64,000 nucleotides of DNA, from positions 151,675,001-151,739,000 of the forward strand of contig NC_133026.1 in NCBI RefSeq assembly GCF_048771995.1. The letters run 5' to 3'. Position 1 is the stretch's first letter. Each line of letters starts with the position of its first letter. This document shows, piece by piece, positions 1-62,198 of the stretch. The position numbers were made by a program, and so were the translations under genes. This DNA is from Taeniopygia guttata (lineage: Eukaryota; Chordata; Aves; Passeriformes; Estrildidae). Below the pieces are notes generated by a model. That model saw only the letters and a list, made by a program, of their open reading frames with translations, made no database searches and was not told the origin of the DNA.

Positions 1-47
1 AACCCAGGGAACCCCAACCCCAGCATCTGCCTGGTGGCCGTGGCCGT
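1..47 (+). CDS. BOP1: possible 3' end of the preceding BOP1 exon, or one of its tandem copies
   Basis: The segment reads NPNPSICLVAVAV and is followed by a good donor (GTGAGT at 48-53), with a phase-2 end that joins correctly to the exon at 1147 (GT+G = Val, then Asp-Glu-Gln). It matches the family's WNPxPxxCLVA segment. Two further copies with donors at 149 and 231 follow, and the bases just upstream of this copy do not give the expected Trp. The authentic exon end may therefore lie left of the window, with this being a decoy copy. Confidence 0.35.
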
Positions 48-236: not shown

Positions 237-1146
237 CCCCTGGGATCATCCCCGTGGATCGTTCCCAGGGATCATTCCCAGATTTCCCTGATCCCAGAGG
301 ATTCCCTGATCCCAGATTTCCCATTTCCCAGGGAAGAGCAGCTGCTTTTGGGGGGAATTCCCTGATCCCAAAGGATTCCCTGATCCCCCTGATCCCGGAC
401 TCCCCCTGATCCCGGATCCCCCCTGATCCCGGATTTCCCCTGATCCCGGATTCCCCCTGATCCCGGATTTTCCATTCCCCAGGGATGAGCAGCTGCTTTT
501 GGGGGGAATTCCCTGATCCCAAAGGATTCCCTGATCCCAAAGGATTCCCTGATCCCGGACTCCCCCTGATCCCAAAGGATTCCCTGATCCCGGACTCCCC
601 CTGATCCCAGATTTCCCATTCCCAGGGAAGAGCAGCTGCTTTTGGGGGGAATTCCCTGATCCCAAAGGATTCCCTGATCCCAGATTTCCCCTGATCCCGG
701 ATTCCCCCTGATCCCAGATTCCCCCTGATCCCGGATTTTCTGTTCCCCAGGGATGAGCAGCTGCTTTTGGGGGGAATTCCCTGATCCCAAAGGATTCCCT
801 GATCCTGGATTTCCCCTGATCCCGGATTTCCCTGATCCCGGATTTTCCATTCCCCAGGGATGAGCAGCTGTTTTTGGGGGGAATTCCCTGATCCCAAAGG
901 ATTCCCTTATCCCAGATTTCCCCTGATCCCAAATTCCCCCTGATCCTGGATTTCCTGTGATCCCAGATGCCCCCTGATCCTGGATCCCCCCACCCCGATC
1001 CCAGATTTCCCATTCCCCAGGGAAGAGCAGCTGCTTTTGGGGGGAATTCCCTGATCCCAAAGGATTCCCTGATCCCAAGGGATTCCCTGATCCCGGATTT
1101 CCGCTGATCCCAGATTCCCCCTGATCCCGGATTTTCCATTCCCCAG
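237..1146 (+). repeat. BOP1 intron array, TGATCCC units with six decoy acceptors
   Basis: Short TGATCCCGGATTTCCCC units interrupted by six ~30-bp copies of the 5' edge of the exon at 1147. Acceptor AGs lie at 330, 481, 624, 749, 856 and 1019, each followed by GGRAGAGCAGCTGC or GGATGAGCAGCTGC. Confidence 0.9.
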
Positions 1147-1327
1147 GGATGAGCAGGTGCTCCTGGTGAATCCGGGCCTCGGGGACCGGCTGCTGGTGGC
1201 GGCCACGGATCAGCTCCTGGATTCCTGGGAAGCTCCGGAGGAGGAGCGGATCCAGCCGGTGCGCTGGATCCCGGCCAGCCCCGAGGAGCGCGGGAAGGGG
1301 ATCCGGCTGCTGGTGCAGCACGACAAG
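1147..1327 (+). CDS. BOP1: BOP1 exon (first complete one in window)
   Basis: 181 nt, acceptor CCCCAG at 1141-1146, donor GTGGGA at 1328. One base completes a codon, then 60 codons: [16 protein letters not shown]... to ...[10 protein letters not shown], ending in phase 0. It encodes the strand-turn region of an inner propeller blade and the acidic EAPEEER linker. The intron to the left carries six degenerate copies of this exon's first ~25 bases. Confidence 0.95.
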
Positions 1328-4300
1328 GTGGGATCGGCGTTCCCGGGATCCGGATGGGATCGGCGATCCCGGGATCTGGATGGGATTGGTGTTTTCGGGA
1401 TCTGGCTGGGATCAGCATTCCTGGGATCCGGCTGGGATCAGCGTTCCTGGGATCCGGATGGGATCAGCGTTCCCAGGATCTGGCTGGGATTGGCATTCCC
1501 AGGATCCGGCTGGGATTGGTGTTCCCGGGATCGGGTGGGATTGGTGTTCCCGGAATCTGGGTGGGATCGGCATTCCCGGGATCCAGCTGGGATCAGCATT
1601 CCCGGGATCAGGTGGGATCTGCGTTCCTGGGATCCGGCTGGGATTGGCATTCCCAGGATTGGGTGGGATCGGCATTCCCGGGATCCGGGTGGGATCGGTG
1701 TTCCCAGGATTGGGTGGGATCGGCATTCCCGGGATCTGGCTGGGATCGGTGTTCCCGGGATCCAGCTGGGATCGACATTCCCAGGGTTTGGGTGGGAATA
1801 ACAATCCTGGGATCCAGGTGGGATCAGAATTCCCAGGATCCTGGTGGGATCGGCATTCCGGGGATTTGGGGTTTTGTGGCTCAATCCCAGCTCCGGGATC
1901 CAGGGAGGGGCTTTGTTCCCACATCTGCAATTCCAAGAGGATCCTTGTTCCCAGCTCCACGTCCCGAGGGATCCCTTCCCATTCCCAGGAATCCTGGGAA
2001 GTGCTGGAGCCTTTCCCAGCAGGGGGATCCTCCCCATCCCTGTTTTCTGGGAACATTTCCCGGAGCCGCAGGAATTCCAGCTGGGATCAGCTTCTCCCGG
2101 GAATCCTCGGCCTCAGTCCCTGCCCTGCTTCCCGAGGCCCCAAATCCCGGAATTCCAGCCCTTTCCAGGGGAATATTCCCAAAAATCCCAACCCGAAGCC
2201 ATTCCCTAGGTCCTGTCCATGTTTTCCATGGGAGCAGATCCCGCCCTGGATCCCCCTGGATCCCCTCAATCCCGCTTTTCTCCGGGATGAGCCCCAACAG
2301 ATCCCTCAGCTTCCGGGAATTCCCCCATTCCCAACCCCATTCCCAACCCCATTCCCAATCCCATTCCCATCTCTGGCCCCACCAACCAAACCCTTACCCC
2401 TTCCCTGATCCCGCTATTCCCACCCCGAGGAGCTCTGGGACATTCCAGAGGGTCGGGATTTTGGGATCTCACCTGGATCCTGATCCCAATTCATTCCCAT
2501 TCCCAATCCCATTCCCATTCCCGTTCCCAGCCGGTGACGCAGGTGACGTGGCACGGCCGGGGCGATTCCCAGGCCTCAGTGGTGATCCATAGGGTCGGGA
2601 TTTCGGGATCCCATTCCCATTCCCAATCCCATTCCCCTTCCCAGCCGGTGACGCAGGTGACATGGCATGGCCGGGGCGATTCCCATTCCATAGGTGGTGA
2701 TCCATAGGGTCGGGATTTCGGGATCCCATTCCCAATCCCATTCCTGTTCCCATTCCCAATCCCATTTCCGTTCCCATTCCCGTTCCCAGCCGGTGACACA
2801 GGTGACGTGGCACGGCCGGGGCGATTACTGGGCCTCGGTGGTGATCCATAGGGTCGGGATTTCGGGATCCCATTCCCGTTCCCATTCCCATTCCCGTTCC
2901 CAGCCGGTGACGCAGGTGACGTGGCACGGCAAGGGCGATTCCCAGGCCTCAGTGGTGATCCATAGGGTCGGGATTTTGGGATTTCACCCGGATCCTGATC
3001 CCAATCCCATTCCCATTCCCGATCGGTGGTGATCCATAGGGTCGGGATTTCGGGATCCCATTCCCATTCCATAGGTGGTGATCCATAGTGTCGGGATTTC
3101 GGGATCCCAATCCCATTCCCAATCCCATTCCCATTCCCAATCCCATTCCCGTTCCCAGCCGGTGACACAGGTGACGTGGCACGGCCGGGGCGATTCCCAG
3201 GCCTCGGTGGTGATCCATAGGGTCGGGATTTCGGGATCCCATTCCCAATCCCGATCCCAATCCCGTTCCCGTCCCCAGCCGGTGACACAGGTGACGTGGC
3301 ACGGCCGGGGCGATTACTGGGCCTCGGTGGTGATCCATAGGGTCGGGATTTCAGGATCCCATTCCCATTCCTGATCCCATTCCCATTCCCGTTCCCAGCC
3401 GGTGACGCAGGTGACGTGGCACGGCCGGGGTGATTCCCAGGCCTCGGTGGTGATCCATAGGGTCGGGATTTTGGGATCTCATCTGGATCCCATTCCCATT
3501 CCCGTTCCCAGCCGGTGACGCCGGTGACGTGGCCCGATCCCATTCCCAATCCCATTCCCATTCCCGTTCCCGTTCCCAATCCCATTCCCATTCCCATTCC
3601 CGTTCCCAGCCAGTGACGCAGGTGACGTGGCCCGATCCCATTCCCATTCCCAATCCCATTCCCATTCCCGTTCCCGTTCCCAGCCGGTGACACAGGTGAC
3701 GTGGCACGGCCGGGGCGATTACTGGGCCTCGGTGGTGATCCATAGGGTCGGGATTTCGGGATCCCATTCCCATTCCATAGGTGGTGATCCATAGGGTCGG
3801 GATTTCGGGATCCCATTCCCATTCCCGTTCCCGTTCCCGTTCCCAGCCGGTGACGCAGGTGACCTGGCACGGCCGGGGCGATTCCCAGGCCTCGGTGGTG
3901 ATCCATAGGGTTGGGATTTTGGGATCCCATTCCCATTCCATAGGTGGTGATCCATAGGGTTGGGATTTCAGGATCTCACCCTGATCCTGATCCCAATCCC
4001 ATTCCCAATCCCAATCCCATTCCCATTCCCGTTCCCGTTCCCAGCCGGTGACACAGGTGACGTGGCACGGCCGGGGCGATTACTGGGCCTCGGTGGTGAT
4101 CCATAGGGTCGGGATTTTGGGATCCCATTCCCATTCCATAGGTGGTGATCCATAGGGTCGGGATTTCAGGATCCCATTCCCATTCCATAGGTGGTGATCC
4201 ATAGGGTCGGGATTTCGGGATCCCATTCCCATTCCATAGGTGGTGATCCATAGGGTCGGGATTTCGGGATCCCAATCCCAATCCCGATCCCAATCCCGAT

Positions 4301-7300
4301 CCCGTTCCCAGCTGGTGACGCAGGTGACCTGGCACGGCCGGGGCGATTCCCAGGCCTCGGTGGTGATCCATAGGGTCGGGATTTCGGGATCTCACTTGGA
4401 TCCCAATGCCATTCCCATCCCAAGGAGCTCTGGGATGATCCAGAGGATCAGGATCTCAGGATCTCACCTGGATCCCATTCCCAATCCCATTCCCATTCCC
4501 GTTCCCAGCCGGTGACACAGGTGACGTGGCACGGCTGGGGCGATTACTGGGCCTCGGTGGTGATCCATAGGGTCGGGATTTCGGGATCCCATTCCCAATC
4601 CCAATCCCGTTCCCATTCCCAGCCAGTGACGCAGGTGATGTGGCCCAATCCCATTCCCAATCCCAATCCCGATCCCATTCCCATTCCCAGCCGGTGACGC
4701 AGGTGACGTGGCACAGCCGGGGCGATTCCCGGGCCTCGGTGGTGATTCATAGGGTCGGGATTTCGGGATCCCATTCCCATTCCCGATCCCAATCCCATTC
4801 CCAATCCCATTCCTGTTCCCAATCCCATTCCCATTCCCATTCCCGTTCCCAGCCGGTGACGCAGGTGACGTGGCACAGCCGGGGCGATTACTGGGCCTCG
4901 GTGGTGATCCATAGGGTCGGGATTTTGGGATCTCACCCGGATCCTGATCCCATTCCTATCCTGAGGAGCTCTGGGATGATCCAGAGGATCAGGATCTCAG
5001 GATCTCACCTGGATCCCATTCCCATTCCCATTCCCATTCCCGTTCCCAGCCGGTGACACAGGTGACGTGGCACGGCCGGGGCGATTACTGGGCCTCGGTG
5101 GTGATCCATAGGGTCGGGATTTCGGGATCCCATTCCCAATCCTGATCCCAATCCCGTTCCCGTTCCCAGCCGGTGACGCAGGTGACGTGGCACGGCAAGG
5201 GCGATTACTGGGCCTCGGTGGTGCGGAACCCCGGCGGGCGGCAGGTGCTGATCCACCAGAGCAGCCGGCGCTGGAGCCAGAACCCGTTCCGGAAAAGCCC
5301 GGGAATGATCCAGTGCGTGCGCTTCCACCCGCTCCGGCCCTACTTCCTGGTGGCCTCCCAGCGCTCCGTGCGCATCTACAACCTCCTGCGCCAGGAGCTC
5401 ACCAAGAAGCTCCAGAGCAACTGCCAGTGGATCTCCAGCATGGCCGTGCACCCCGGAGGTGCGGGATAGATCCGGGAGTGCCGGGATCCCTGCGGGGAAT
5501 CCGGGTTTTTTCCCTGATTCCCGGTTTTTTCCCTAGGGGACAACGTGATCTGCGGGAGCTACGACAGCAAGCTGGCCTGGTTCGACCTGGACCTGTCCAC
5601 GCGGCCCTACCGGCTGCTGCGGTGAGCGCCGGCGGTGTTCCGATGCTTACTGGGATCCGACGGGATCCGTTGGGATCCACCGGGGTCGTCCCAGCAATGT
5701 TCCTGGTGTCCCGGCTCTCCCTGGATTCCCGGGATCCACCGGGGTCATCCCAGCGGCATTCCCGGTGTCCCAACTCTCCCTGGCTTCCCGGGATCCCCCA
5801 GAATCCGCCGGGATCCGCTGGGGTTGTCCTGGCGGCATTCCCAGTATTCTGGCTCTCCCTAGCTTCCCGGGATCTGCCAGGATCCACCGGGATCATCCCG
5901 GTGGTGTTCCCGGTGTCCCGGCTCTCCCTGGCTTCCCGGGATCCACCAGGCTCTGCCGGGGTCATTCTGGCACCGTTCCTGGTGTCCCGGCTCTCCCTGG
6001 ATTCCCGGGATCCGCTGGGATCATCCCGGCGGCATTCCCGGTGTCCCGGCTCTCCCTGGATTCCCCTCTGTTTTCCTGGCGCTGACTCCCATTTTTCCCT
6101 GGTGTTTTCCCGGTGTTCCCCAATGTTTTCCCGGTGTTTCCCCCGGTGTTTCCCCTGGTGTTTTTCCCAGTGTTTTCCCAGTGTTTTTCCTGGTGTTTTC
6201 CTGGTGTTTTCCCAGACTCGTGACTCCCATTTTTCCCGGTGTTTTCCCCAGTGTTTTTCCCAGTGTTTTCCTGGTGTTTTCCCAGACTCTGTCACCTGTT
6301 TTTCCCAGTGTTTTCCCGGCTCTGACTCCCATTTTTCCTGGTGTTTTCCCGGTGTTTTTCCCAGTGTTTCCCCTGGTGTTTTTCCCAGTGTTTTCCCAGT
6401 GTTTTTCCTGGTGTTTTCCTGGTGTTTTCCCAGACTCGTGACTCCCATTTTTCCCGGTGTTTTCCCCAGTGTTTACCCAGTATTTTTCCCAGTGTTTTTC
6501 CCAGTGTTTTCCCAGACTCTGACACCCGTTTTTCCCGCTGTTTTCCCGGCTCTGACTCCCATTTTTCCTGGTGTTTTCCCTGTTTTTTTTCCCAGTGTTT
6601 TTCCTAGTGTTTTCCCGGTGTTTTCCTGGTGTTTTCCCAGTGTTTTTCCCGGTGTTTTCCTGGCTCTGACTCCTATTTTTCCTGGTGTTTCTCCGGTGTT
6701 TTTCCCAATGTTTTCTTGGTGTTTTTCCCGGTGTTTTCCCGGCACTGACTCCCATTTTTCCCAGGGTTTCCCAGTGTTTTCCCGGTGTTTTCTCAGGCTC
6801 TGATTCCCATTTTTCCCTGGTGTTTTCTCGGTGTTTCCCCAATGTTTTTCCCAGTGTTTTCCTGGTGTTTCCCCGCTGTTTCCCCGCTGTTTTCCCGGTG
6901 TTTCCCGGCGCTGACTCCCATTTTTCCTGGGCTCTGATTCCCATTTTTCCCGCTGTTTCCCCGCTGTTTCCCCGGTATTTCCCCGCTGTTTTCCCGGTGT
7001 TTCCCCGCTGTTTCCCCACTGTTTCCCGCTGTTTCCGGGCGCTGACTCCGGCTGTCCCGCAGGCACCACGGCCGCGCCGTGCGCTCGGTGGCGTTCCACC
7101 GGCGGTATCCGCTCTTCGCCTCTGGCTCCGACGACGGCTCCGTCATCGTCTGCCACGGAATGGTCTACAAGTACGGGAATATCCCGGGAATTCCGGGTGG
7201 GATCTGTGGGTGGGATTCGTGGGATCCATGGGAATCCCGGGATTTATCGATGGGATTGTCAGATTTATGGGATTCATGGCAAGTACGGGATTTATTTATG

Positions 7301-9215: not shown

Positions 9216-9310
9216 GCCCCGATCCCACGGGATCCGCCGGGATCCGGAGGGATCCACCCCGATCCGGAGGGATCCGCAGGGATCCGCCGCCTCAGGAACG
9301 CACCGCGCTC

Positions 9311-9316
9311 AATAAA
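9311..9316 (+). terminator. BOP1 proximal poly(A) signal AATAAA
   Basis: First canonical AATAAA after the BOP1 stop codon, 95 bases downstream, followed by a T-rich run. It is the most likely cleavage signal of BOP1; the later copies are alternatives. Confidence 0.85.
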
Positions 9317-9639
9317 GGCTTTTTTTGGATGTAATTCCCGGCTCTTTGCGTCCCGAATTCCCCAATATTCCCAGTCCCATCCCCACATTTCCTACCCCTG
9401 ACGTTCCCCGTGGGAATCTGCTGGGATCCAGCGGGATCCGCAGGGATCCGCCGCCTCAGGAAGGCACTGCGCTCAATTAAGGCGTTTTTTGGATACGATC
9501 CCGGGATCTTCACGTCCCAAATTCCCCAATGTTCCCAGTCCCACATCCCTCAGTGTTCTCATTCCCACATTCCCTACCCCTGACATTCCCATGGGAATCT
9601 GCCGGGATCCAGCGGGATCCAGTGGGATTCACTGCGCTC

Positions 9640-9645
9640 AATAAA
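9640..9645 (+). terminator. duplicate poly(A) signal AATAAA (module 3)
   Basis: Canonical hexamer in the third copy of the 3' UTR module. The second copy (9475-9480) is mutated to AATTAA. Confidence 0.6.
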
Positions 9646-9823
9646 GGTTCATTTTGGATACGATCCCGGGATCTTCGTGTCCCGAATTCCCCAATATTCC
9701 CATTCCCACATCCCTCAGTGTTCCCAGTCCCATTCCCACATTCCTGGCACCTGACATTCCCGGGATCCAGAGGGATCCGGAGGGATCCAGAGGGATCCGC
9801 CGCCTGTGGAATTCACCACGCTC

Positions 9824-9829
9824 AATAAA
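9824..9829 (+). terminator. duplicate poly(A) signal AATAAA (module 4)
   Basis: Canonical hexamer followed by GGCTTTTTTGGG, as in module 1. It is the last possible BOP1 end before the intergenic array. Confidence 0.6.
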
Positions 9830-9880
9830 GGCTTTTTTGGGATGTCATTCCCGGGATCTTCGTGTCCCGAATTCCCCAAA

Positions 9881-11720: not shown

Positions 11721-12281
11721 TACAAATCGGGATCTGTACAGGGGCGGTTCCGGGTGGGAATTTTGGGAACGGATCCCGTTTCCCACCGGGAAGCAGCAGA
11801 GTTGGGATGGGGGGTGGAAGGGTGGGAATGGATCCATCGGATCCTCGGGAAGCAGCTGGAGGGGCGGGATCGGATTCCATCGGATCCCATCCCAAATTCC
11901 GGCCGTTTTCCCGATTTTTTTGCCCCGGGAAGGCGCCGGCGTTCCCGGCATTCCCGAGGGTGAAGGTGCAGGAAGACTTTTCCCATGGATTGGGATCCCT
12001 CGGGATGGGATCGGGATCCCTCGGGGTATTGCTGAGCGGAGCCGGGAATTCCGGGAATTCCGGGATTCAGAAGAGGTGAATGAGGTGTCCCAGGGTCCCA
12101 GAACTGGGAATCTCAGGAATTCCGGGAATTCTGGGATTCAGAGGAGGCAGATGAGTTGTCCCAGGGTCTCAGAGCTGGGAATTCCTGGGAATTCCGGGAA
12201 TTTTGGGATTCAGAGGATGCGGACGAGCCGTCCCAGGGTCTCAGAGCTGGGAATTCCCGGGAATTTCAGGAATTCCGGGAT
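11721..12281 (-). other. MROH1 3' UTR
   Basis: Mostly non-repetitive except 12066-12281, which holds three further copies of the stop-codon end of the last exon in a ~72-bp tandem. Confidence 0.7.
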
Positions 12282-12320
12282 TCAGAGGATGCGGACGAGC
12301 CGTCCCAGGGTCTCGGCCGC
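12066..12320 (-). repeat. four-copy ~72-bp tandem of the MROH1 stop-codon end
   Basis: Copies begin near 12066, 12136, 12208 and 12281 (the real one). Each holds TCAGAGGATGCGGACGAGCC-type sequence followed by a TCCCAGGGTCTC-like block. The copy at 12208 matches the real exon end almost exactly. Confidence 0.9.
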
Positions 12321-12367
12321 TTTGATCCGCACGTCCGGGGCCGGATCCTTCAGCAGCAGCTGCAGGG
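12282..12367 (-). CDS. MROH1: MROH1 terminal coding exon with stop
   Basis: 86 nt: two bases, 27 codons, TGA at 12284-12282. Acceptor CGTTCCAG. It reads [20 protein letters not shown] then LGRLVRIL and stop, matching the family C-terminus (LLKDPAPEVRTRAAE in mammals). The stop-codon end of this exon is duplicated in the 3' UTR. Confidence 0.96.
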
Positions 12368-57300: not shown

Positions 57301-60300
57301 CCTGAGGGGGAAAACAGGGAAAAATGAAAAAATTGGGGGAAAATATGGGAAAAATGAGGGGAAAATGTGGGAAAAATATGGGGAAAATGTGGGAAAATAC
57401 GGAAAAATTCCAGGAAAAACCAAGGGAATAGGTGGGGAAACGCAGTCGAGGCAGAGCCACCAGGCCCCCCCGCGGCTGCTCCGGCTCCGCCTCAGTCCGG
57501 TCCTGTGGGAGAAAACAAGGAAAATGTGTGAAAATGTGGGAAAAATGTGGGAAACGTGGGAATAATGTGGGAAAATGTGGGGAAAATGTGGGAAAATACA
57601 GAAAAAATCCGGGAAAAACCAAGGGAAAAGGTGGGGAAACGCGGCCGAGGCACAGCACCAGGGCCCCCCACGGCTGCTCTGGCTCCGCCTCAGTCCGGTC
57701 CTGTGAGGGAAAAAACAGGGAAAAATGTGGGGAAAATGTGTGAAAATGTGGGAAAATGTGTGAAAATGTGGACAAAATATGGGAAAATACAGAAAAAATC
57801 CGGGAAAAACCAAGGGCAAAGGTGGGGAAACGCGGCCGGGGCACAGCACCAGGGCAGCCCGCGGCTGCTCCGGCTCCGCCTCAGTCCGGTCCTGTGGGGG
57901 AAAACAAGGAAAATGTGGGAAAAATGTGGAGAAAATGTGGGAAAATGTGGGGAAAATGTGGGAAAATGTGGGAAAATATGGGAAAATACAGAAAAATTCC
58001 GGGAGAAAACAAGGGCAAAGGTGGGAAAATGTGGCTGGAGCAGAGCACCAGGGCCCCCCGCGGCTGCTCCGGCTCCCCCTCAGTCAGGTCCTGTGGGGAA
58101 AAACAGGGAAAATGTGGGAAAAATGTGAGAAAAATATGGGAAAATGTGGGAAAAATGTGAGAAAAATATGGGAAAATGTGGGAAAATGTGGGAAAATGTG
58201 TGAAAAAATGGGAAAAATGTGGGAAAATACAGAAAAATTCCGGGAAAAACCAAGGGCAAAGGTGGGGAAACGCGGCCGAGGCAGAGCACCAGGGCCCCCC
58301 GCGGCTGCTCCGGCTCCGCCTCAGTCCGGTCCTGTGGGGGGAAAACAGGGAAAATGTGGGAAAAATGTGTGAAAATTGGGGAAAATGTGGGAAAATGTGG
58401 GAAAATGTGGGGAAAATATGGGAAAATACAGAAAAATTCCGGGAAAAAACAAGGGAAAAGGCGGGAAAAGGCGGCCAGAGCAGAGCACCAGGGCCCCCCG
58501 CGGCTGCTCTGGCTCCGCCTCAGTCCGGTCCTGAGGGGAAAACAGGGGAAAATGGAAAAATTGGGGGAAAATATGGGAAAAATGTGGGGAAAATGTGGGA
58601 AAATGTGGGGAAAATGTGGGAAAAATGTGGGAAAATACAGAAAAATTCCAGGAAAAAACAAGGGAAAAGGTGGGGAAACGCGCCCGAGGCAGAGCACCAG
58701 GGCCCCCCGAGGGTGCTCCGGCTCCGCCTCAGTCCGGTCCTGCAGGGGAAAAACATGGGAAAATGTGGGGAAAATGGGAAAAATGTGGGAAAAATGTGGG
58801 AAAAGACGGGGAAAATGTGGGAAAATGTGGGAAAATACAGAAAAATTCCAGGAAAAAACAAGGGCAAAGGTGGGAAAAGGCGGCCGAGGCACAGCACCAG
58901 GGCCCCCCACGGCAGCTCCGGATCACCCTCCGTCCAGTCCTGAAGGGGAAAACAGGGAAAATGTGGGAAAATGTGGGAAAATAGGGGAAAATGGGAAAAA
59001 TATGGGAAAAAAATGTGGGAAAATACAGAAAAATTCCGGGAAAAACCAAGGGCAAAGGTGGGGAAACGCGGCCGAGGCACAGCACCAGGGCCCCCCGCGG
59101 CTGCTCCGGCTCTGCCTCAGTCCGGTCCTGAGGGGAAAAACAGGGAAAAATGGAAAAATTGGGGGAAAATATGGGGAAAATGTGGGGAAAATGTGGGAAA
59201 ATGTGGGAAAAATGTGGGAAGAATATGGGAAAATACAGAAAAATTCCAGGAAAAACCAAGGGCAAAGGTGGGAAAACGCGGCCAAGGCAGAGCACCAGGG
59301 CCCCCCGAGGGTGCTCTGGCTCCGCCTCAGTCCGGTCCTGTGGGGGGAAAACAGGGAAAAATGGAAAAATTGGGGGAAAATATGGGAAAAATGTGGGGAA
59401 AATGTGGGAAAATGTGGGGAAATGTGGGAAAAATGTGGGAAAATACAGAAAAATTCCAGGAAAAAACAAGGGAAAAGGTGGGGAAACGCGCCCGAGGCAG
59501 AGCACCAGGGCCCCCCGCGGCTTCTTCGGCTCTGCCTCAGTCCGGTCCTGAGGGGAAAAACAGGGAAAATGTGGGAAAAATGTGTGAAAATTGGGGAAAA
59601 TGTGTGAAAAATGTGGGAAAATGTGGGAAAAAGTGGGAAAAATATGGGAAAATACAGAAAAATTCCAGGAAAAAACAAGGGAAATGGTGGGAAAAGGCGG
59701 CCGGAGCAGAGCACCAGGGCCCCCCGCGGCTGCTTCGGCTCTGTCTCAGTCCGGTCCTGAGGGGGAAAACAGGGAAAATGTGGGGAAAATGTGTGAAAAT
59801 TGTGGAAAATGTGGGAAAAATATGTGAAAATGTGTGAAAAATACGGAAAAATTCCTGGAAAAAACAAGAGAAATGGTGGGAAAAGGTGGCCCAGGCACAG
59901 CACCAGGGCCCCCCCGCGGCTGCTCCGGCTCCGCCTCAGTCCGGTCCTGTGAGGGGAAAAAACAGAGAAAAATGTGGGGAAAATGTGTGAAAATTGGGGA
60001 AAATGTGGGAAAAATGTGGGAAAATGTGGGGAAAATGTGTGAAAAATATGGGAAAAAGTGGGAAAATACAGAAAAATTCCGGGAAAAACCAAGGGAAATG
60101 GTGGGGAAATGCAGCCGGGGCAGAGCACCAGGGCCCCCCACGGCTGCTCCGGCTCCGCCTCAGTCCGGTCCTGTGGGGGAAAGCAGGGAAAATATGGGAA
60201 AAATGTGGGAAAATGTGGGAAAAAGTGGGAAAAATATGGGAAAATACAGAAAAATTCCAGGAAAAAACAAAGGAAAAGGTGGGAAAAGGCGGCCGGAGGA

Positions 60301-62198
60301 GAGCACCAGGGCCCGCCGCGGCTGCTCTGGCTCCGCCTCAGTCCGGTCCTGAGGGGAAAAACAGGGAAAATGGAAAAATTGGGGGAAAATATGGGGAAAA
60401 TGTGGGAAAAATGTGGGAAAATGTGGGAGAAATGTGGGAAAAATATGGGAAAATACAGAAAAATTCCAGGAAAAACCAAGGGAAAAGGTGGGAAAAGGCG
60501 GCCGGAGCAGAGCACCAGGCCCCCCGCGGCTGCTCCGGCTTTGCCTCAGTCCGGTCCTGAGGGGAAAAACAGGGAAAAATGGAAAAATTGGGGGAAAATA
60601 TGGGGAAAATGTGGGGAAAATGTGTGAAAAAATGGGAAAAATGTGAGAAAATACAGAAAAATTCCAGGAAAAAACAAGGGAAAAGGTGGGAAACGCGGCC
60701 GAGGCAGAGCACCAGGGCCCCCCGCGGCTGCTCTGGCTCCGCCTCAGTCCGGTCCTGTGAGGGCAAAAACAGGGAAAAATGTGGGAAAAATGGGAAAATA
60801 TGGGAAAAATGGGGAAAAAATGGGAAAAATGTGGGAAAATATAGAAAAATTCCAGGAAAAACCAAGGGCAAAGGTGGGAAAAGGCGGCCGAGGCACAGCA
60901 CCAGGGCAGCCCGCGGCTGCTCCGGCTCTGCCTCAGTCCGGTCCTGAGGGGGAAAAAGAGGGAAAATGTGGGAAAATTGGGGGAAAATATGGGAAAAATG
61001 TGGGAAAAATGTGGGAAAATGTGGGAAAATGTGGGAAAATCTGGGAAAATACAGAAAAATTCCGGGAAAAACCAATGGAAAAGGTGGGAAAAGGCGGCCA
61101 GAGCAGAGCACCAGGGCCCCCCATGGCTGCTCCAGCTCTGCCTCAGTTCGGTCCTGTGGGGAAAAACAGGGAAAATATTTGAAAAGTATGGGAAAATTTG
61201 TGGGAAAGTGTGGGAAAAACATGGGAAAAATATGGAAAAATGGGGGGAAATGGGTAAAAACATGGAAAAACCCAGGGAAAAATGTGAGAAAAGCATGGGA
61301 AAAATGGGGGAAAATATCAGAAAAGGTGGGAACACACAGGGGAAACAGTGGGAAAATGGGGGGAAAATAGGGAAAAATTGGAGGAAAAACGGGGGAAAAT
61401 TGGGAAAAATGGGGAAAATATGGGAAAATGGGGGAAATGGGTAAAATAATGGAAAATCCCATGGAAAAACCCAGGGAAAAGGCGGCCAGAGCAGAGCACC
61501 AGGGCCCCCCACAGCTGCTCCGGCTCAGTCCGGTCCTGAGGGAAAACAGGGAAAATGTGGGAAAAATGTGGGAAAAATATGGGAAAACATAGGGGAAAAG
61601 GTGGGAAAACAGGGAAAGTGGGTGAAAACATGGAAAAACATGGAAAATATGGAAAAAGCTTGGAAAAATATGGGAAAGACGTGGGAACGCCATGGGAAAA
61701 AATGGAAAAAATATGGGGAAAAAACCCATGGAAAACAAGGGAAAAAATACAGAAAAAACATGGAAAAACATGGAGAAAACTGAATTCCAGATCCGTGGAA
61801 TTGATGGAATTTCTGGAATTTTGGGATCATGGAATTCCAGATTCACGGATCTCCGGATTCATGGAATTGTGGAATTCCAGGATGGTGGAATTCGTGGAAT
61901 GCTGGAATTTTGGGATCATGGAATTCCCAATACGAGAACAGAATTCTAAGGGAACCCTGTTAAAAATCCTCCTGAAATCCTGGAATTACACAGAACGGAT
62001 GGAATATTCCCAAAAAAATCCCCTCCCCGTTCCCGTTTTTCCCATTTTTCCTGAAAATCCATTGGGAATTCCCACCTTGAAGATGCTGAACAAGCCCTGG
62101 GATTTCCTGCAGACGTCGGATTTCTCAAATTCCTCCAATTTTTCCAAAGTTTCTTCCAGGTGATTCCGGGCGCAGATCCCGAAGCAGGAAGCCAGACC
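12282..62198 (-). CDS. MROH1: MROH1 maestro HEAT-like repeat protein 1, C-terminal part (22 exons, 5' end outside window)
   Basis: Exons joined from high to low coordinates total 2865 nt, i.e. 954 codons plus TGA. All 22 have AG..GT borders on the - strand and every phase fits, which is strong internal proof. Recognisable MROH1 segments in order: [248 protein letters not shown]. Human MROH1 has about 1640 residues, so about 60% is here. The protein is a large alpha-helical HEAT solenoid; HPO-27/MROH1 has been described as a RAB7-recruited lysosome fission factor. Convergence with BOP1 matches human synteny. Introns are nearly all tandem repeat. Confidence 0.95.
12395..13790. repeat. MROH1 last intron: hexanucleotide (GGGATC)n / (GGATCA)n array
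   Basis: Long runs of GGGATCGGGATC, shifting into GGATCAGGATCA and GGGATTGGGATC variants, with GGTCAGGATGGGGTCAGG insertions. It reaches within ~30 bp of the last acceptor. Confidence 0.93.
13791..14254. other. non-repetitive intron stretch
   Basis: About 460 bp of ordinary-looking intron sequence; no exon fitting MROH1 phases was found in it. Confidence 0.5.
14255..15030. repeat. MROH1 intron ~65-bp A-rich array
   Basis: About a dozen units of GGGATGATCCCAAAAAATT plus AAAATTAAA. Confidence 0.85.
15031..15550. other. non-repetitive intron stretch with an imperfect foldback
   Basis: No MROH1 exon found. 15299-15338 and the complement of 15429-15488 resemble each other (CCCGGCAGGGCCCTC against CCCGGGAAGGGCCCTC, both running into a T-rich end). 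Confidence 0.4.
15551..16810. repeat. MROH1 intron AAAAATGGGATTTTTT array
   Basis: 20-30-bp units of CCCTAAAAATGGGATTTTTT, with occasional ATGAGGAATT variants; degenerate to the right. Confidence 0.85.
16854..16919 (-). CDS. MROH1: MROH1 penultimate exon, [10 protein letters not shown]
   Basis: 66 nt: two bases, 21 codons, one base. Acceptor CCTCCAG, donor GTGAGT. It reads [20 protein letters not shown] then S, isolated by a 2.6-kb array on one side and a 4.5-kb intron on the other. Confidence 0.96.
16920..19475. repeat. MROH1 intron ~180-bp array templated next to a donor
   Basis: Thirteen copies, each with CCTTGGGGACCTCCAGGGCT and CACCTCCTGGTGACAAAAGC. Anchors lie near 17090, 17285, 17470, 17665, 17885, 18050, 18228, 18388, 18566, 18748, 18914, 19078 and 19262. 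The intron just past the donor (19390-19470, GGCCCCGGTGACAAAGGCCA) looks like the founding unit. Confidence 0.88.
19476..19578 (-). CDS. MROH1: MROH1 exon, [17 protein letters not shown]
   Basis: 103 nt: 34 codons plus one base. Acceptor CCCCGCAG sits directly against the GGGGACATT array; donor GTGAGG. It reads [20 protein letters not shown], then [14 protein letters not shown]. The Met is internal, not a start. Confidence 0.96.
19582..20230. repeat. (GGGGACATT)n array
   Basis: About 65 units of 9 bp, GGGGACATT with GGGGGGATTGG and GGGGATGTT variants, abutting the acceptor of the exon at 19476. Potential G-quadruplex on the + strand. Confidence 0.95.
20335..20740. repeat. 8-bp CCCAATAT/CCCAATGT array
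   Basis: About 50 units of CCCAATRT with occasional CCCAAAAT. Confidence 0.92.
20741..21523 (-). repeat. MROH1 intron array with four decoy exon ends and donors
   Basis: ~185-bp units with ~46 bases of the end of the exon at 21524 plus the donor (TCCCACCAGGAACTTGCAGA on +) at about 20761, 20969, 21147 and 21337. Units are separated by CCCGATATCCCAACATCCC filler. Confidence 0.92.
21524..21658 (-). CDS. MROH1: MROH1 exon, [18 protein letters not shown]
   Basis: 135 nt, 45 codons, phase 0. Acceptor TTTTCCAG, donor GTGGGACATCC. It reads [20 protein letters not shown], then ..[15 protein letters not shown]. The last ~46 bases plus donor recur four times downstream. Confidence 0.97.
21743..21895 (-). 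CDS. MROH1: MROH1 exon, [14 protein letters not shown]
   Basis: 153 nt, 51 codons, phase 0. Acceptor TTTCCCAG, donor GTGGGA. It reads [20 protein letters not shown], then ..[17 protein letters not shown]. Only an 84-bp intron separates it from the next exon. Confidence 0.96.
21940..23065. repeat. MROH1 intron GATCCCAAAATTCCCATCC array with higher-order duplication
   Basis: ~30-bp units. In addition the block at ~21938-22090 recurs nearly intact at ~22736-22890 (around CCATAGATCCCACTCTGGGA), an ~800-bp higher-order repeat. Confidence 0.88.
23070..24600. repeat. MROH1 intron ~15-bp AATGGAAAAATCCC array
   Basis: About 100 units alternating AATGGAAAAATCCC, AATGGGCCAATCCC and AGTGGGACAATCCC. Confidence 0.92.
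24741..24929 (-). CDS. MROH1: MROH1 exon, [10 protein letters not shown]
   Basis: 189 nt, 63 codons, phase 0. Acceptor CCGGCAG, donor GTGAGC. It reads [20 protein letters not shown], then ..[24 protein letters not shown] is identical in human MROH1. Confidence 0.97.
24960..26110. repeat. MROH1 intron ~200-bp array (six units) grown from the dispersed repeat
   Basis: Units with GGGGGGCTCATCC, GGATTGAGGGGATCCAGGGG, GGATGGGGAAAGAGGGA and GGCAAACAGGGATTTGGTGG. The last unit continues into the dispersed repeat at 26110-26330, so part of that element was tandemly amplified. Confidence 0.88.
25960..26330 (-). repeat. dispersed repeat, inverted copy of 1960-2340
   Basis: Reverse complement closely matches the BOP1 intron element 24 kb away, including GGAAAGGGCTGGAATTCCGG and the TTCCTGCGGCTCCGGGAAAT block. 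Confidence 0.8.
26510..26656 (-). CDS. MROH1: MROH1 exon, [14 protein letters not shown]
   Basis: 147 nt, 49 codons, phase 0. Acceptor TTTTCCAG, donor GTGGGA. It reads [20 protein letters not shown], then ..[16 protein letters not shown], a canonical HEAT helix pair. Confidence 0.95.
26660..27030. other. non-repetitive intron stretch
   Basis: About 370 bp without tandem structure. Open frames exist but none matches MROH1 or fits its phases. Confidence 0.4.
27031..28590. repeat. (GGAT)n / GGATGGATCCAT array with an embedded foreign block
   Basis: Tetranucleotide-based units GGATGGATCCATGGAT over 1.5 kb. Positions 27660-27835 hold instead ATTGGAGACACCAGGAATTC units identical in type to 29095-30180. 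Confidence 0.93.
28617..28731 (-). CDS. MROH1: MROH1 exon, VTSSAFLAE
   Basis: 115 nt: one base plus 38 codons, phase 0 end. Acceptor CCGCCCAG, donor GTGAGT. It reads [20 protein letters not shown], then ..[11 protein letters not shown]. It lies between the GGAT array and the 30-bp GGAATTCC array. Confidence 0.94.
28740..29090. other. non-repetitive intron stretch
   Basis: About 350 bp of plain intron upstream of the exon at 28617; nothing further recognised. Confidence 0.4.
29095..31320. repeat. MROH1 intron ~30-bp GGGAATTCC(A/G)CACTGGGA array, two subfamilies
   Basis: 29095-30180 uses GGGATTGGAGACACTGGGAA; 30180-31320 uses GGGATGGGTGACACCGGGAA alternating ATTCCATACT and TCCCATTTTG. Over 70 units. 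Confidence 0.93.
31439..31576 (-). CDS. MROH1: MROH1 exon, [10 protein letters not shown]
   Basis: 138 nt: one base, 45 codons, two bases. Acceptor TTTTCCAG, donor GTAGGG. It reads [20 protein letters not shown], then ..[20 protein letters not shown]. The GGWEL motif is conserved. Confidence 0.94.
31590..33285. repeat. MROH1 intron GGATTGGATTTGGGATT array
   Basis: 6-12-bp units GGATTT/GGGATT/GGATCTGG over 1.7 kb, with higher-order recurrence of ~140-bp blocks (e.g. TTTGGGCTTGGATTTGGGAC at 33005 and again after ~100 bp). Confidence 0.9.
33286..34290. other. non-repetitive intron stretch (~1 kb)
   Basis: The longest array-free part of any MROH1 intron here. No exon fits the phase-2 gap between flanking exons, and no transposon family was recognised. 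Confidence 0.4.
34300..35695. repeat. MROH1 intron ~22-bp CAGAATTCCCACTTTTCCCC array
   Basis: About 60 units; ends against the donor of the exon at 35701. Confidence 0.92.
35701..35870 (-). CDS. MROH1: MROH1 exon, [15 protein letters not shown]
   Basis: 170 nt: 56 codons plus two bases. Acceptor CCGGGCAG, donor GTGCGG. It reads [20 protein letters not shown], then ..[20 protein letters not shown]. It corresponds to the ELFVxLLLRVSCTVGVQLP block of mammalian MROH1. Confidence 0.95.
35945..37205. repeat. MROH1 intron GATGGAATTCCCATGGATTT array, then GGGAATTTTGGGG array
   Basis: 35945-36740: ~33-bp units with GGAATTCCC and GGATTTGGGGTTTTC. A ~60-bp block with GAGTTAACCCCT recurs at ~36330 and ~36670. 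36740-37205: GGGAATTCCATGGGAATTTT units. Confidence 0.9.
37227..37371 (-). CDS. MROH1: MROH1 exon, [16 protein letters not shown]
   Basis: 145 nt: one base plus 48 codons, phase 0 end. Acceptor TTTTCCAG, donor GTGAGT. It reads [20 protein letters not shown], then ..[17 protein letters not shown], a hallmark MROH1 stretch. Confidence 0.95.
37385..38696. repeat. MROH1 intron GGGATAAAAATGGGAATT array then GGATCAGGGCAGGATTTG array
   Basis: 37385-38000: ~30-bp units with GGGAGAAAAATGGGA. 38010-38696: ~25-bp units GGGATCAGGAATTCCGGGAT. One decoy copy of an exon end plus donor lies at 38537-38586. Confidence 0.88.
38703..38857 (-). CDS. MROH1: MROH1 exon, [12 protein letters not shown]
   Basis: 155 nt: 51 codons plus two bases. 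Acceptor CGTTGCAG, donor GTGGGA. It reads [20 protein letters not shown], ending ..[10 protein letters not shown] and a split Ser. Ala/Leu/Arg-rich and very GC-rich. One partial copy of its 3' edge plus donor lies at 38537-38586. Confidence 0.93.
38875..40440. repeat. MROH1 intron ~50-bp GGGAAAAGTGGGAAAAGAGG array
   Basis: Units with GGGATAGCCTGGGAAAATGG and GGGAATGCCGGGAAAAG; about 30 units. Confidence 0.88.
40450..41935 (-). repeat. MROH1 intron T-rich array with five decoy exon ends and donors
   Basis: GGAATTTTTTGGGATTTTT filler plus five copies of ~44 bases of the 3' edge of the exon at 41936 with a donor-like GTCGGAATTCC or GTTGGAATTCC, near 40508, 40967, 41144, 41322 and 41476. On + they read CCTGCTCGTGCAGGATCTCC. 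Confidence 0.92.
41936..42088 (-). CDS. MROH1: MROH1 exon, [17 protein letters not shown]
   Basis: 153 nt, 51 codons, phase 0. Acceptor TTTCTGCAG, donor GTTGGAATTCC. It reads [20 protein letters not shown] to ..[13 protein letters not shown]. Its 3' edge with donor is copied five times downstream in the intron, and its 5' edge with acceptor once upstream (~42670-42800). Confidence 0.94.
42089..43100. repeat. MROH1 intron A-rich array with a ~120-bp duplication of the exon 5' edge
   Basis: CCCCAAAAATCC filler. 42672-42800 repeats 42070-42190, including the end of exon 41936-42088, the acceptor (CTGCAGAAAATTGGG on +) and intron. Confidence 0.85.
43184..43305 (-). CDS. MROH1: MROH1 exon, [14 protein letters not shown]
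   Basis: 122 nt: two bases plus 40 codons. Acceptor TTTTCCAG, donor GTGAGA. It reads [20 protein letters not shown], then ..[16 protein letters not shown], a conserved HEAT pair. Confidence 0.94.
43310..43800. repeat. MROH1 intron ~170-bp units, three copies
   Basis: Units with GGAATTCCAGAGGGAATT and TTTTTGGGGCAATTCCAGCC. The third (43680-43800) resembles 47240-47370 and 47405-47520. Confidence 0.8.
44025..44041 (-). promoter_or_regulatory. CTCF-type core motif
   Basis: On the - strand TCCAGCAGGGGGCGCTG. Positions CCAGCAGGGGGCG fit the vertebrate CTCF core CCASYAGRKGGCR at all 13 positions. It lies in an ordinary, non-array piece of intron between the exons at 43184 and 44779. Occupancy cannot be judged from sequence. 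Confidence 0.6.
44050..44690. repeat. MROH1 intron CCCAAAAATCCCAAAAACC array
   Basis: 25-40-bp units with GGGAAAACCATTCCCAAAAA. Confidence 0.88.
44779..44914 (-). CDS. MROH1: MROH1 exon, [19 protein letters not shown]
   Basis: 136 nt: 45 codons plus one base. Acceptor TCCCGGCAG, donor GTGGGA. It reads [20 protein letters not shown] and ends LLRIQLCFQ. It joins to [10 protein letters not shown] in the next exon, as in other vertebrates. Confidence 0.94.
44940..45940. repeat. MROH1 intron GGGAATGGGAATTGGGG array
   Basis: 6-bp-based GGGAAT/GGGAATT units with GGGGATGGAAAAGCGGG and GGGGATAAAAACAGGAAT insertions. Confidence 0.9.
45978..46082 (-). CDS. MROH1: MROH1 exon, [11 protein letters not shown]
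   Basis: 105 nt, 35 codons, phase 0. Acceptor GTTCCCAG just before CATTTAGGC, donor GTGAGT. It reads [20 protein letters not shown] and ends FFLENLDVR. The AG inside CATTTAG was rejected as acceptor because it breaks the frame and loses the conserved His-Leu-Gly. Confidence 0.94.
46090..47120. repeat. MROH1 intron TGCAGGGAAAATTCTGGAAT array, then CCAAAATTCCC array
   Basis: 46090-46590: ~27-bp units. 46590-47120: units with CCCAAAACCACTCCTGGAAT. Confidence 0.9.
47132..47227 (-). CDS. MROH1: MROH1 exon, [16 protein letters not shown]
   Basis: 96 nt, 32 codons, phase 0 at both ends. Acceptor TTTTTCCAG, donor GTGAGT. It reads [20 protein letters not shown] and ends SGLQEIFA. One HEAT helix pair. 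Confidence 0.93.
47230..48167. repeat. MROH1 intron: two ~165-bp units, then array with three decoy exon ends
   Basis: 47230-47520 holds two copies of a unit with CCAGAAAAAAATGGG. 47560-48167 holds TTTTCCCCCAAAATCCCA filler plus copies of the end of the exon at 48173 with its GTGGGAATTCC donor at ~47778, ~48004 and ~48075. Confidence 0.88.
48173..48293 (-). CDS. MROH1: MROH1 exon, [11 protein letters not shown]
   Basis: 121 nt: one base, then 40 codons, ending in phase 0. Acceptor GGATTCCAG, donor GTGGGAATTCC. It reads [20 protein letters not shown] to ..NREQPGAQ. The last ~25 bases plus donor are repeated three times in the downstream intron. Confidence 0.92.
48345..49600. repeat. MROH1 intron TTATTGGGGATTAATGGGAA array
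   Basis: AT-rich 14-25-bp units GGGATTTATTGGGGATTTAT and GGGAATTATTGGG over 1.25 kb. Confidence 0.92.
49601..49815. repeat. MROH1 intron GGAATTCCCAAGGATCC short array
   Basis: Four or five ~55-bp units with CCCAAGGATCC immediately after the donor of the exon at 49822. Confidence 0.7.
49822..49901 (-). CDS. MROH1: MROH1 exon, [10 protein letters not shown]
   Basis: 80 nt: 26 codons plus two bases. Acceptor TTTTCCCAG. It reads [26 protein letters not shown]. The donor is inferred as GTATCC, leaving GT to pair with the C of the next exon (Val-Ala-Leu-Glu-Pro-Ala-Leu), which matches the family. GTGTAT two bases earlier would break the frame. The exact 3' border is less certain than for other exons. 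Confidence 0.85.
50060..50500. repeat. MROH1 intron CCTCAATTCCTGGATTT array
   Basis: 17-bp TTCCTGGATTTCCTCAA units, degenerating rightwards. Confidence 0.88.
50520..52690. repeat. MROH1 intron 22-bp CATTATCCATCCCAGTATAT array
   Basis: About 100 highly homogeneous units, alternating CATTATCCATCCCAGTATAT and CAGTATCCCATCCCAGTATA types. Open in all three + frames, so it yields a spurious 774-codon frame. Confidence 0.95.
52767..52946 (-). CDS. MROH1: MROH1 exon with Gly/Asn/Pro-rich insertion
   Basis: 180 nt, 60 codons, phase 0. Acceptor GTCCCGCAG, donor GTGAGA. It starts [20 protein letters not shown] and ends [12 protein letters not shown], both conserved. Between them residues 22-48 hold [20 protein letters not shown] and PGGSGS, absent from the mammalian protein at this point. 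Its DNA is tandem GGGAATTncCC-like repeat, so the coding region has absorbed minisatellite sequence in frame. Confidence 0.93.
52960..53870. repeat. MROH1 intron GGGATTGGGAACC array
   Basis: 6-13-bp GGGATT/GGGAACC/GGGATC units directly before the acceptor of the exon at 52767. Confidence 0.9.
53878..53996. repeat. (TAAAA)n pentanucleotide microsatellite
   Basis: About 22 nearly perfect AAAAT/TAAAA units, the only simple AT-only repeat in the window. Confidence 0.95.
54000..54840. repeat. MROH1 intron GGAATTCCGGGATCATGG array
   Basis: 54000-54120 is CCGGGAGTTACAGAAAAAT units. 54235-54840 is 8-30-bp units of TGGAATT and GGGATCATGGAATT. Confidence 0.85.
54841..55020. other. non-repetitive intron stretch
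   Basis: About 180 bp without clear repeats; no exon expected by phase between the flanking exons. Confidence 0.4.
55025..56525. repeat. MROH1 intron A-rich arrays (GGGAAAAACAAAATTCC, then AAAATTCCTGG)
   Basis: 55025-55490: ~25-bp units. 55530-55550 is a C-run followed by T-run. 55570-56525: CCTGGAAAATTCCCAGAAAA units. Confidence 0.88.
56545..56691 (-). CDS. MROH1: MROH1 exon, template of the 23-copy decoy array
   Basis: 147 nt, 49 codons, phase 0. Acceptor CCCCACAG, weak donor GTCAGA. It begins [20 protein letters not shown] and ends [10 protein letters not shown]. The first ~58 bases and the acceptor recur 23 times in the upstream intron (56692-61560). The repeat copies read [20 protein letters not shown], more like one another than like the exon. 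Confidence 0.93.
56692..61560 (-). repeat. MROH1 intron ~210-bp array with 23 decoy acceptor/exon copies
   Basis: Each unit carries, on the - strand, a CCC(C)CACAG-like or CCTCAG-like acceptor and ~58 bases of the exon at 56545-56691 (GACCGGACTGAGGCGGAGCC). A-rich filler GGGAAAATGTGGGAAAAATG follows on +. Anchors on + lie near 56846, 57066, 57290, 57490, 57690, 57880, 58078, 58320, 58520, 58730, 58926, 59120, 59320, 59540, 59745, 59940, 60160, 60335, 60545, 60745, 60925, 61140 and 61525. Confidence 0.95.
61561..61960. repeat. MROH1 intron GGAAAAACATGG tail then TGGAATTC units
   Basis: Degenerate end of the 210-bp array, then 61780-61960 with TGGAATTCCAGGAT-type units. Confidence 0.7.
62076..62198 (-). 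CDS. MROH1: MROH1 exon (most 5' in window)
   Basis: 123 nt, 41 codons, phase 0 at both ends. Acceptor CTCTGCAG and donor GTGGGAATTCC on the - strand. It reads [20 protein letters not shown], then LEEFEKSD.. to ..GLFSIFK, a helical HEAT segment that joins to [10 protein letters not shown] in the next exon. Confidence 0.93.

What the first reader, a model, noticed from the sequence alone, without database searches (positions are those of the whole stretch)
1..62000. Tandem intron arrays templated on exon borders: the real splice site is the end unit of a row of decoys
In both genes, independent arrays contain a short exon edge plus its authentic splice site, repeated on the intron side and terminating at the real exon. 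Cases: BOP1 acceptors at 1147 and 5170; MROH1 acceptors at 56691 and 42088; MROH1 donors at 21524, 38703, 41936 and 48173; plus the stop-codon end of MROH1 and the BOP1 poly(A) module. Ordinary minisatellites do not repeatedly capture exon edges. This suggests a recurrent duplication process that starts or stops at splice junctions, or selection that tolerates decoy-rich introns. I know of no named system matching it.
Basis: partly seen in the sequence, partly recalled or inferred. Interest (0 to 1): 0.88.

Follow-up and report, generated by a model that had tools for sequence, protein, structure and literature searches.

The report
Exon-edge tandem repeats in songbird introns
Introns of two neighbouring genes in a zebra-finch-like bird are filled with tandem copies of the nearest exon edge and its splice site; this is real, is best explained by ordinary local tandem duplication that coding selection filters, and is a further case of a phenomenon named "exon stuttering" in chicken in 2026.

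Summary
I modelled 28 exons of BOP1 (+) and MROH1 (-). Exon-edge tiles are copied into the adjacent intron at 8 of 56 edges, never on the wrong side (0 of 56); exon interiors never (0 of 768 tiles). All 57 decoy splice sites tabulated keep AG or GT.

The reading that duplication starts or stops at splice junctions fails. Of 66 alignments with exon sequence, 65 run on into the intron and none stops at the border. Arrays end 15-62 nt inside the exon. A stop codon and a poly(A) site are captured the same way. A tandem duplication spanning a border must carry the border.

"No named system" is wrong: Hron et al. 2026 describe "exon stuttering", mostly on chicken dot chromosomes; amphioxus "mirages" and human CBS are older parallels.

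What may be added: this is a songbird; MROH1 sits on 148-166 Mb contigs in 5 of 8 other songbird records, so probably not on a dot chromosome; and songbird MROH1 is 59-67% identical to ostrich where 15 other birds are 82-95%, with changes biased to GC-coded residues.

The parts
1..9215 (+). BOP1, 3' part: exons B1 1147-1327, B2 5170-5458, B3 5537-5621, B4 7063-7170, B5 9062-9215 (stop)
   Evidence: spliced ORF open, all GT-AG; PDB BOP1 8fkp_SS E=1.5e-133; bird BOP1 proteins
12282..62198 (-). MROH1, 3' part: 23 exons from 62198-62076 to 12367-12282 (stop), including a 27-nt micro-exon
   Evidence: spliced ORF 2892 nt, one terminal stop; Pfam HEAT_Maestro families; 946 of 963 aa identical to the Taeniopygia guttata protein P0121, no gap
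1..260 (+). three partial copies of the donor edge of the preceding BOP1 exon; the real donor cannot be told because the window begins here
   Evidence: sequence, tblastn hits at 10-48 and 108-149; a snowfinch BOP1 model (P0009) begins in what looks by eye like the same unit
276..1161 (+). acceptor array of B1: six decoys, 13-15 exonic nt, ending at the real acceptor 1147
2470..5223 (+). acceptor array of B2: 18 decoys, median spacing 120 nt, 54 exonic nt in 14 of 18 copies, ending at the real acceptor 5170; array limits approximate
   Evidence: similar units in a Passer montanus BOP1 model
9215..9870 (+). four tandem copies of the BOP1 3'-end module (AATAAA at 9311, 9640, 9824; AATTAA at 9475)
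12042..12314 (-). 72-nt array at the end of the MROH1 CDS: last 31-33 coding nt with the stop codon plus 3' flank
20600..21579 (-). donor array of M19: four decoys, 55-56 exonic nt in 4 of 5 alignments, spacing 179-209 nt; real donor after 21524
38411..38756 (-). one extra copy of the M11 donor edge (54 exonic nt, 100% identical); real donor after 38703
40400..41972 (-). donor array of M10: five decoys, 37 exonic nt; real donor after 41936; lower limit approximate
42063..42850 (-). single upstream copy (42702) of the M10 acceptor edge (26 exonic nt); real acceptor 42088
47760..48209 (-). donor array of M5: three decoys, 29-37 exonic nt; real donor after 48173
56630..61700 (-). acceptor array of M2: 23 decoys, median spacing 201 nt, 60 or 62 exonic nt in 21 of 23, ending at the real acceptor 56691; upper limit approximate
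52816..52876 (-). in-frame expansion inside coding exon M3 ([18 protein letters not shown]), varying in length among songbird models, absent in the five non-songbirds aligned
   Evidence: TRF period 12 x 5.3; alignment

Best explanation
This is exon stuttering: local tandem duplication and amplification of genomic DNA in an unstable locus. Units of about 70-200 nt are duplicated head to tail. When a unit happens to span an exon-intron border, the first duplication yields [edge + intron][edge + intron], and the protein survives as long as the splice site still joined to the whole exon is used; the other copies become intronic decoys and amplify further by slippage, unequal exchange or conversion. 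Duplications inside coding sequence or of whole exons are mostly removed by selection, in-frame ones sometimes not. Shown: the geometry, exon-side ends shared within an array, intact decoy sites, and a gene model at the exon-joined sites that matches an annotated zebra finch protein. Indicated by a gene model only: sharing of the BOP1 array with a sparrow. Inferred: the duplication mechanism, the role of selection, and how the spliceosome chooses the exon-joined site (exon definition, plus decay of wrong products).
For: Edges only and correct side only: 8 of 56 edge tiles, 0 of 56 wrong side, 0 of 768 interior tiles. Units run through the border: 65 of 66 alignments, 0 stop at it. Shared exon-side end per array: 54 nt in 14 of 18 B2 copies, 60 or 62 nt in 21 of 23 M2 copies, 37 nt in 5 of 5 M10 copies, 15 nt in 5 of 6 B1 copies. 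Capture does not need a splice site: stop codon and poly(A) module. The process is general: 82% of intron bases lie in TRF arrays, 83% in the median intron, and one exon carries an in-frame expansion. Chance suffices: random 120-nt duplications would cross a border by 15 nt or more in 12-27% of cases for introns of 1500-600 nt and 48-76% for 300-150 nt (model); 8-10 edges are captured in a window with 50 TRF clusters of period 40 or more, 4 of which TRF itself runs into an exon. Decoys would not serve as exon extensions: of 54 tested (41 of 44 acceptors, 13 of 13 donors) one gives an open in-frame extension. The T. guttata protein P0121 has the exon-joined sites: 946 of 963 identical, no gap.
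Against: Taking the median spacing as unit length, the exonic share of the unit is below half in 9 of 9 captured edges (0.04-0.46, B1 and B2/M2 shares by hand); uniform breakpoints would give that with probability about 0.002. One M5 spacing alone gives 0.52. Needing enough intron to keep the real site working may explain it, but I did not test that. Array ends pile up at the border (23 of 45 between -20 and +9), so exons act as barriers more strongly than in a pure random model. Lack of partner sites as the reason for decoy silence fits donors (0 of 13 have a partner acceptor) and most M2 decoys (6 of 23 have a partner donor) but not B2 (16 of 18) or the M10 acceptor copy (1 of 1). Two short M. 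guttata-type models and others in the databases skip or misplace exons here, so annotation is weak support for splicing. No RNA, reads or second assembly were examined.
Confidence: 0.85

Rival explanations
1. A junction-directed process: duplication is started or stopped by splice sites, for example through co-transcriptional R-loops, spliceosome pausing or copying from spliced RNA.
For: Every captured segment is at an exon edge; the border columns are among the least variable in the M2 array (2 of 236 six-column windows as invariant); array ends cluster near borders (23 of 45 between -20 and +9).
Confidence: 0.05
2. Decoys are kept because they do something in splicing, for example as stepping stones or sinks.
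For: AG intact in 44 of 44 tabulated acceptor decoys and GT in 13 of 13 donor decoys; 16 of 23 M2 decoys score at least as well as the real site and 12 of 13 donor decoys at least equal theirs; naive chance of no change in the two AG columns 0.03 (M2) and 0.016 (B2).
Against: In 14 full B2 copies 41 of 42 non-CpG exonic columns are invariant, so the border is not special, and 12 of 93 windows are as invariant; B2 decoys all score below the real site (0 of 18); copies share ancestry, so columns are not independent trials.
Confidence: 0.05
3. Assembly artefact: collapsed or falsely expanded repeats.
For: Repetitive sequence; 1310 different 60-mers occur more than once, longest exact repeat 248 nt at 63280 and 63527. 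No reads were available.
Against: The M2 copies diverge: no two of the 24 exon-part 60-mers (23 decoys and the real one) are identical and neighbours are hardly more alike than distant ones (0.82 against 0.81 ungapped identity); both ORFs are intact; a sparrow BOP1 model holds similar units; in chicken the repeats of one gene, PHF8, were checked with raw nanopore data (PMC12954441, section 7).
Confidence: 0.05

Closest known systems
Exon stuttering / sequence stuttering, chicken (Hron et al. 2026, PMC12954441; abstract and sections 7, 9, 16 read in full, other passages by search)
   Same: A lateral part of an exon with its splice site repeated through the adjacent intron in imperfect tandems; exon parts 20-187 nt, median 36; 1-44 copies; more than 90% of sources within 1 base of the border; introns full of simple repeats.
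   Different: Screened in chicken, 190 of 236 introns on dot chromosomes, 10 on other micro- and 36 on macrochromosomes; here a songbird locus whose relatives sit on chromosome-sized contigs in 5 of 8 records. BOP1 and MROH1 are not named in its main text (0 occurrences); its supplementary gene list was not open to me. It reports no case of repeats crossing into exons; here one coding exon carries an in-frame expansion and a stop codon and poly(A) site are captured.
Mirage minisatellites of amphioxus (Adh3, globins, PGBD5; PMC3087553 and PMC3902484, passages read; Canestro et al. 2002 seen only as a reference)
   Different: Reported for a few genes of an invertebrate, with 3 and 6 units in the globin case described; here up to 23 decoys and about ten edges in two adjacent genes.
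Human CBS 31-bp VNTR, c.1444_1467+7 with 16-21 units (PMC2630376, passages read)
   Same: By its coordinates the unit is 24 exonic plus 7 intronic nt, so a minisatellite straddling a donor site.
   Different: One site, short unit, polymorphic within humans; its effect on splicing was not read here.
Intron gain from tandem duplication (Rogers 1989; Zhuo et al. 2007; seen only as references cited in PMC3087553)
   Same: Duplication carrying splice sites.
   Different: There the duplicates create new introns; none is seen in the two gene models here.

Membership tests
exon stuttering (Hron et al. [quoted passage not shown]
exon stuttering (Hron et al. 2026) | hits above the 42.1-bit threshold in proximal, not distal, introns | tested here: met
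   47 proximal, 0 distal at 42.1 bits or more, 27 exons
exon stuttering (Hron et al. 2026) | source within 1 base of the exon border (more than 90% in chicken) | tested here: inconclusive
   33 of 49 short-BLAST hits of 36 bits or more lie within 1 base (67%); with flanks included 65 of 66 alignments span the border
exon stuttering (Hron et al. 2026) | introns heavily covered by simple tandem repeats | tested here: met
   median intron 83%
exon stuttering (Hron et al. 2026) | intron length variation between individuals | not testable with these tools
   one haplotype only
exon stuttering (Hron et al. 2026) | dot chromosome location (typical, not obligatory) | tested here: inconclusive
   MROH1 on contigs of 148-166 Mb in 5 of 8 other songbird records with a contig length, 3 on contigs under 0.37 Mb; the window's own chromosome is unknown
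[quoted passage not shown]
mirage minisatellites | regular splicing not disturbed | tested here: inconclusive
   annotated T. guttata protein uses the exon-joined sites; no RNA examined
mirage minisatellites | length instability | not testable with these tools
   no second haplotype

The most novel reading that the evidence does not exclude
In songbirds a macrochromosomal block holding BOP1 and MROH1 has turned dot-like: GC-biased conversion, a burst of protein divergence and exon stuttering began together in that lineage. The same genes in other birds would then be a matched control, so the cause of stuttering could be tested within one locus. Exon edges and their decoys there would record older exon sequence.
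Probability: 0.45. Interest if true: 0.65.

Novelty: new member of a known kind. Interest (0 to 1): 0.45.

Why it matters
The arrays are a natural splice-choice experiment: up to 23 near-identical copies of a splice site in a row, of which an annotated protein uses only the one joined to the exon. They suggest that stuttering is not confined to chicken, and probably not to dot chromosomes. Because songbird MROH1 diverged sharply while other birds' did not, this locus could test whether GC-biased conversion, instability and fast protein change share one cause. For annotation, decoys mislead gene predictors: a sparrow BOP1 model contains what look like two decoy copies.

Tried and rejected
Selection on decoy splice sites: AG and GT are intact in all 57 tabulated decoys, but the border columns are not clearly more conserved than other CpG-free columns. 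Decoys as in-frame exon extensions: 0 of 41 acceptors tested (the B1 and M10 acceptor copies were not tested), 1 of 13 donors. Lack of partner sites as a general reason for decoy silence: holds for donors and most M2 decoys, fails for B2 and the M10 acceptor copy. Capture at B1's donor (1327; 74.9% identity): probably a shared low-complexity motif, not listed as a case though it is one of the 10 edges. Own-genome search: not completed. ORF listing of the whole window was too long and was replaced by the gene model. Repeated motifs in public MROH1 models as a sign of decoy use: searched with nine patterns in 240 proteins; only the BOP1 model P0012 had one.

Counts were made with 27 exons before the 27-nt micro-exon was found; one search repeats the tile and flank tests with 28. 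The border of one M2 decoy (61535) was set by hand 6 nt from the BLAST estimate because of an indel. One search leaves out four truncated B2 copies.

Full report
What the window is. BOP1 lies on the + strand and MROH1 on the - strand, convergent. tblastn with proteins recalled from memory located exons; borders were then set from GT-AG sites and open frames. A 27-nt micro-exon (55033-55007, VLGIKVETK) was found later, giving 23 MROH1 exons with a 2892-nt open frame and 5 BOP1 exons. Identity was confirmed by tools: PDB BOP1 (8fkp, E=1.5e-133), Pfam HEAT_Maestro families, and the Taeniopygia guttata MROH1 protein P0121 (946 of 963 identical, no gap). The window is therefore probably zebra finch or a very close relative; the species itself is not proven.

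The observation. A tile test on 56 exon edges and 768 interior tiles gave 8 edges copied on their own side (M2, M10 and B2 acceptors; M5, M10, M11 and M19 donors; M22 stop end), 0 of 56 on the wrong side and 0 of 768 interiors in the flanking introns; 12 of 768 interior tiles matched other introns of the same gene. B1's acceptor (1147) shares only 13-15 exonic nt and needs the flank alignment. With the published screen settings there were 47 proximal and 0 distal hits at 42.1 bits or more, from 27 exons; 33 of 49 hits of 36 bits or more begin within 1 base of the border, less than the 90% reported for chicken.

No junction is targeted. Aligning up to 150 nt on both sides of each edge to its own intron gave 66 alignments with at least 10 exonic nt; 65 also hold at least 10 intronic nt and none ends at the border. 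Within an array most copies share one exon-side end: 54 nt in 14 of 18 (B2), 60 or 62 nt in 21 of 23 (M2), 37 nt in 5 of 5 (M10), 15 nt in 5 of 6 (B1), 55-56 nt in 4 of 5 (M19; the fifth alignment reaches 119). That is what one founding duplication followed by amplification would leave. A stop codon (72-nt unit) and a poly(A) module are repeated in the same way, without a splice site at the captured point.

Why edges. A head-to-tail duplication with one end in an exon and the other in the intron must contain the edge; interior-only copies in an intron need a different process. Duplications within an exon change the protein. One such change survives in frame, the [13 protein letters not shown] stretch of M3: songbird models with this exon have it at varying length (shortest in Corvus), four songbird models lack the exon or the stretch, and five non-songbirds aligned lack the stretch. 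A simple model gives 12-27% of random 120-nt duplications crossing a border by 15 nt for introns of 1500-600 nt and 48-76% for 300-150 nt. There are 8-10 captured edges and 50 long-unit TRF clusters in the window, of which TRF itself runs 4 into exons; the comparison is rough, because edges and clusters are different units and ancestral intron lengths are unknown. Against the simplest model: array ends pile up at borders (23 of 45 between -20 and +9; 10 enter the exon by 10 nt or more) and, at median spacing, the exonic share is below half in 9 of 9 captured edges (partly by hand).

Decoys. AG is intact in 44 of 44 tabulated acceptor decoys (M2 23, B2 18, B1 2, M10 1) and GT in 13 of 13 donors. 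In M2 the six columns around the border are invariant in 23 copies, matched by 2 of 236 windows, its own included; in B2 by 12 of 93, where 41 of 42 non-CpG exonic columns of 14 full copies do not vary. I see no firm sign of selection. By a small position matrix made from this window's own sites, 16 of 23 M2 decoys score at least as high as the real site; of 13 donor decoys 9 equal it, 3 exceed it and 1 is lower; B2 decoys are all weaker (0 of 18), as is the M10 acceptor copy (0 of 1). Using a decoy would keep an open frame in 0 of 41 acceptor and 1 of 13 donor cases. A partner site within 20-300 nt is missing for 13 of 13 donor decoys and 17 of 23 M2 decoys but present for 16 of 18 B2 decoys and the M10 acceptor copy. 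Exon definition and removal of wrong products are my inference.

Comparison with other birds. A Passer montanus BOP1 model (P0012) contains two extra QVTWH units; both run through the same exon-intron joint as the B2 units of this window (VV-I-R here and VV-IQR or AM-IQR there), and the second goes on as [13 protein letters not shown]. So this array is probably older than the split of the two families; it rests on one gene model. A snowfinch model (P0009) begins in what looks by eye like the unit seen at 1-260. In the M2 array the majority of decoys encode [16 protein letters not shown]; the zebra finch exon encodes [17 protein letters not shown] at position 4 (23 of 23 decoys) and A at 5 (18 of 23) occur in crow and blackbird models, G at 12 (19 of 23) in Vidua, while Q-P at 9-10 is shared only by decoys and zebra finch among those aligned. 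I read the decoys as partly preserving an older exon state, in an array formed late on the zebra finch line. Against this, D at position 4 is also the state of the five non-songbirds, so the zebra finch exon would have to have gone back; and the taxa are few.

A burst of change in songbirds. I aligned 24 MROH1 proteins chosen from the 120 listed, over the part in this window. Fifteen non-songbird birds are 82-95% identical to ostrich, and these with ostrich 73-85% to a turtle; six songbirds are 59-67% to ostrich and 56-63% to the turtle. At 544 sites invariant in 16 other birds and the turtle, 127 differ here, with G, A, R, P gained 53 and lost 15 times and F, Y, M, I, N, K gained 15 and lost 45 times; third-position GC is 0.88 (MROH1) and 0.95 (BOP1). 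That is the direction GC-biased conversion would give. BOP1 shows it less clearly: this window is 75-76% identical to two non-songbird birds (71% to a third, partial model) that are 79-88% identical to each other, and 70% to a snake to which those birds are 71-76%. No conserved second copy of MROH1 appeared by name among the 120 best of 831 relatives of duck MROH1. Contig lengths place MROH1 on 148-166 Mb contigs in 5 of 8 other songbird records with a length, the rest on contigs under 0.37 Mb, so the locus is probably not on a dot chromosome. Protein models of repeat-rich genes contain errors, so identities are approximate. Whether other birds lack the arrays was not tested: no avian DNA other than the window was available.

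What is known. Hron et al. 2026 (PMC12954441; abstract and sections 7, 9, 16 read, passages elsewhere) name exon stuttering in chicken: 236 introns in 115 genes, 190 on dot chromosomes, 36 on macrochromosomes, mechanism open. A search for the term found only that paper. Amphioxus mirages (PMC3087553, PMC3902484; passages) and the human CBS repeat (PMC2630376; passages) are older parallels. In the listings I saw no paper on stuttering in songbird BOP1 or MROH1; the library holds open-licence papers only, and the chicken supplement was not open to me. The finding is a new member of a known kind; the songbird shift is the part that may be new.

Noticed in passing
MROH1 CDS, 12282-62198 (-): Six songbird MROH1 proteins are 59-67% identical to ostrich, where 15 other birds are 82-95%, with a bias to GC-coded residues; BOP1 shows the same less clearly.
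   Followed up: partly
52816-52876 (-): In-frame GNFPGNF-type expansion in exon M3, at different lengths in songbird models and absent in the five non-songbirds aligned.
   Followed up: partly
55007-55033 (-): 27-nt micro-exon VLGIKVETK, identical to the human peptide as recalled, in an intron otherwise rich in repeats.
   Followed up: yes
9215-9870 (+): Four tandem copies of the BOP1 poly(A) module, three with AATAAA.
   Followed up: partly
whole MROH1: 17 amino-acid differences in 963 between the window and the T. guttata protein record, high for one species; subspecies, haplotype or a close relative.
   Followed up: no
introns of both genes: Strong strand asymmetry (sense GC skew from -0.78 to +0.61) and many G4-like motifs on one strand or the other, changing from intron to intron.
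   Followed up: no
P0012, P0009, P0132 (sparrow, snowfinch and Lonchura protein records): Public gene models that seem to take in decoy or intron sequence at these borders.
   Followed up: partly
63280 and 63527: Longest exact repeat of the window, 248 nt, just outside the modelled exons.
   Followed up: no
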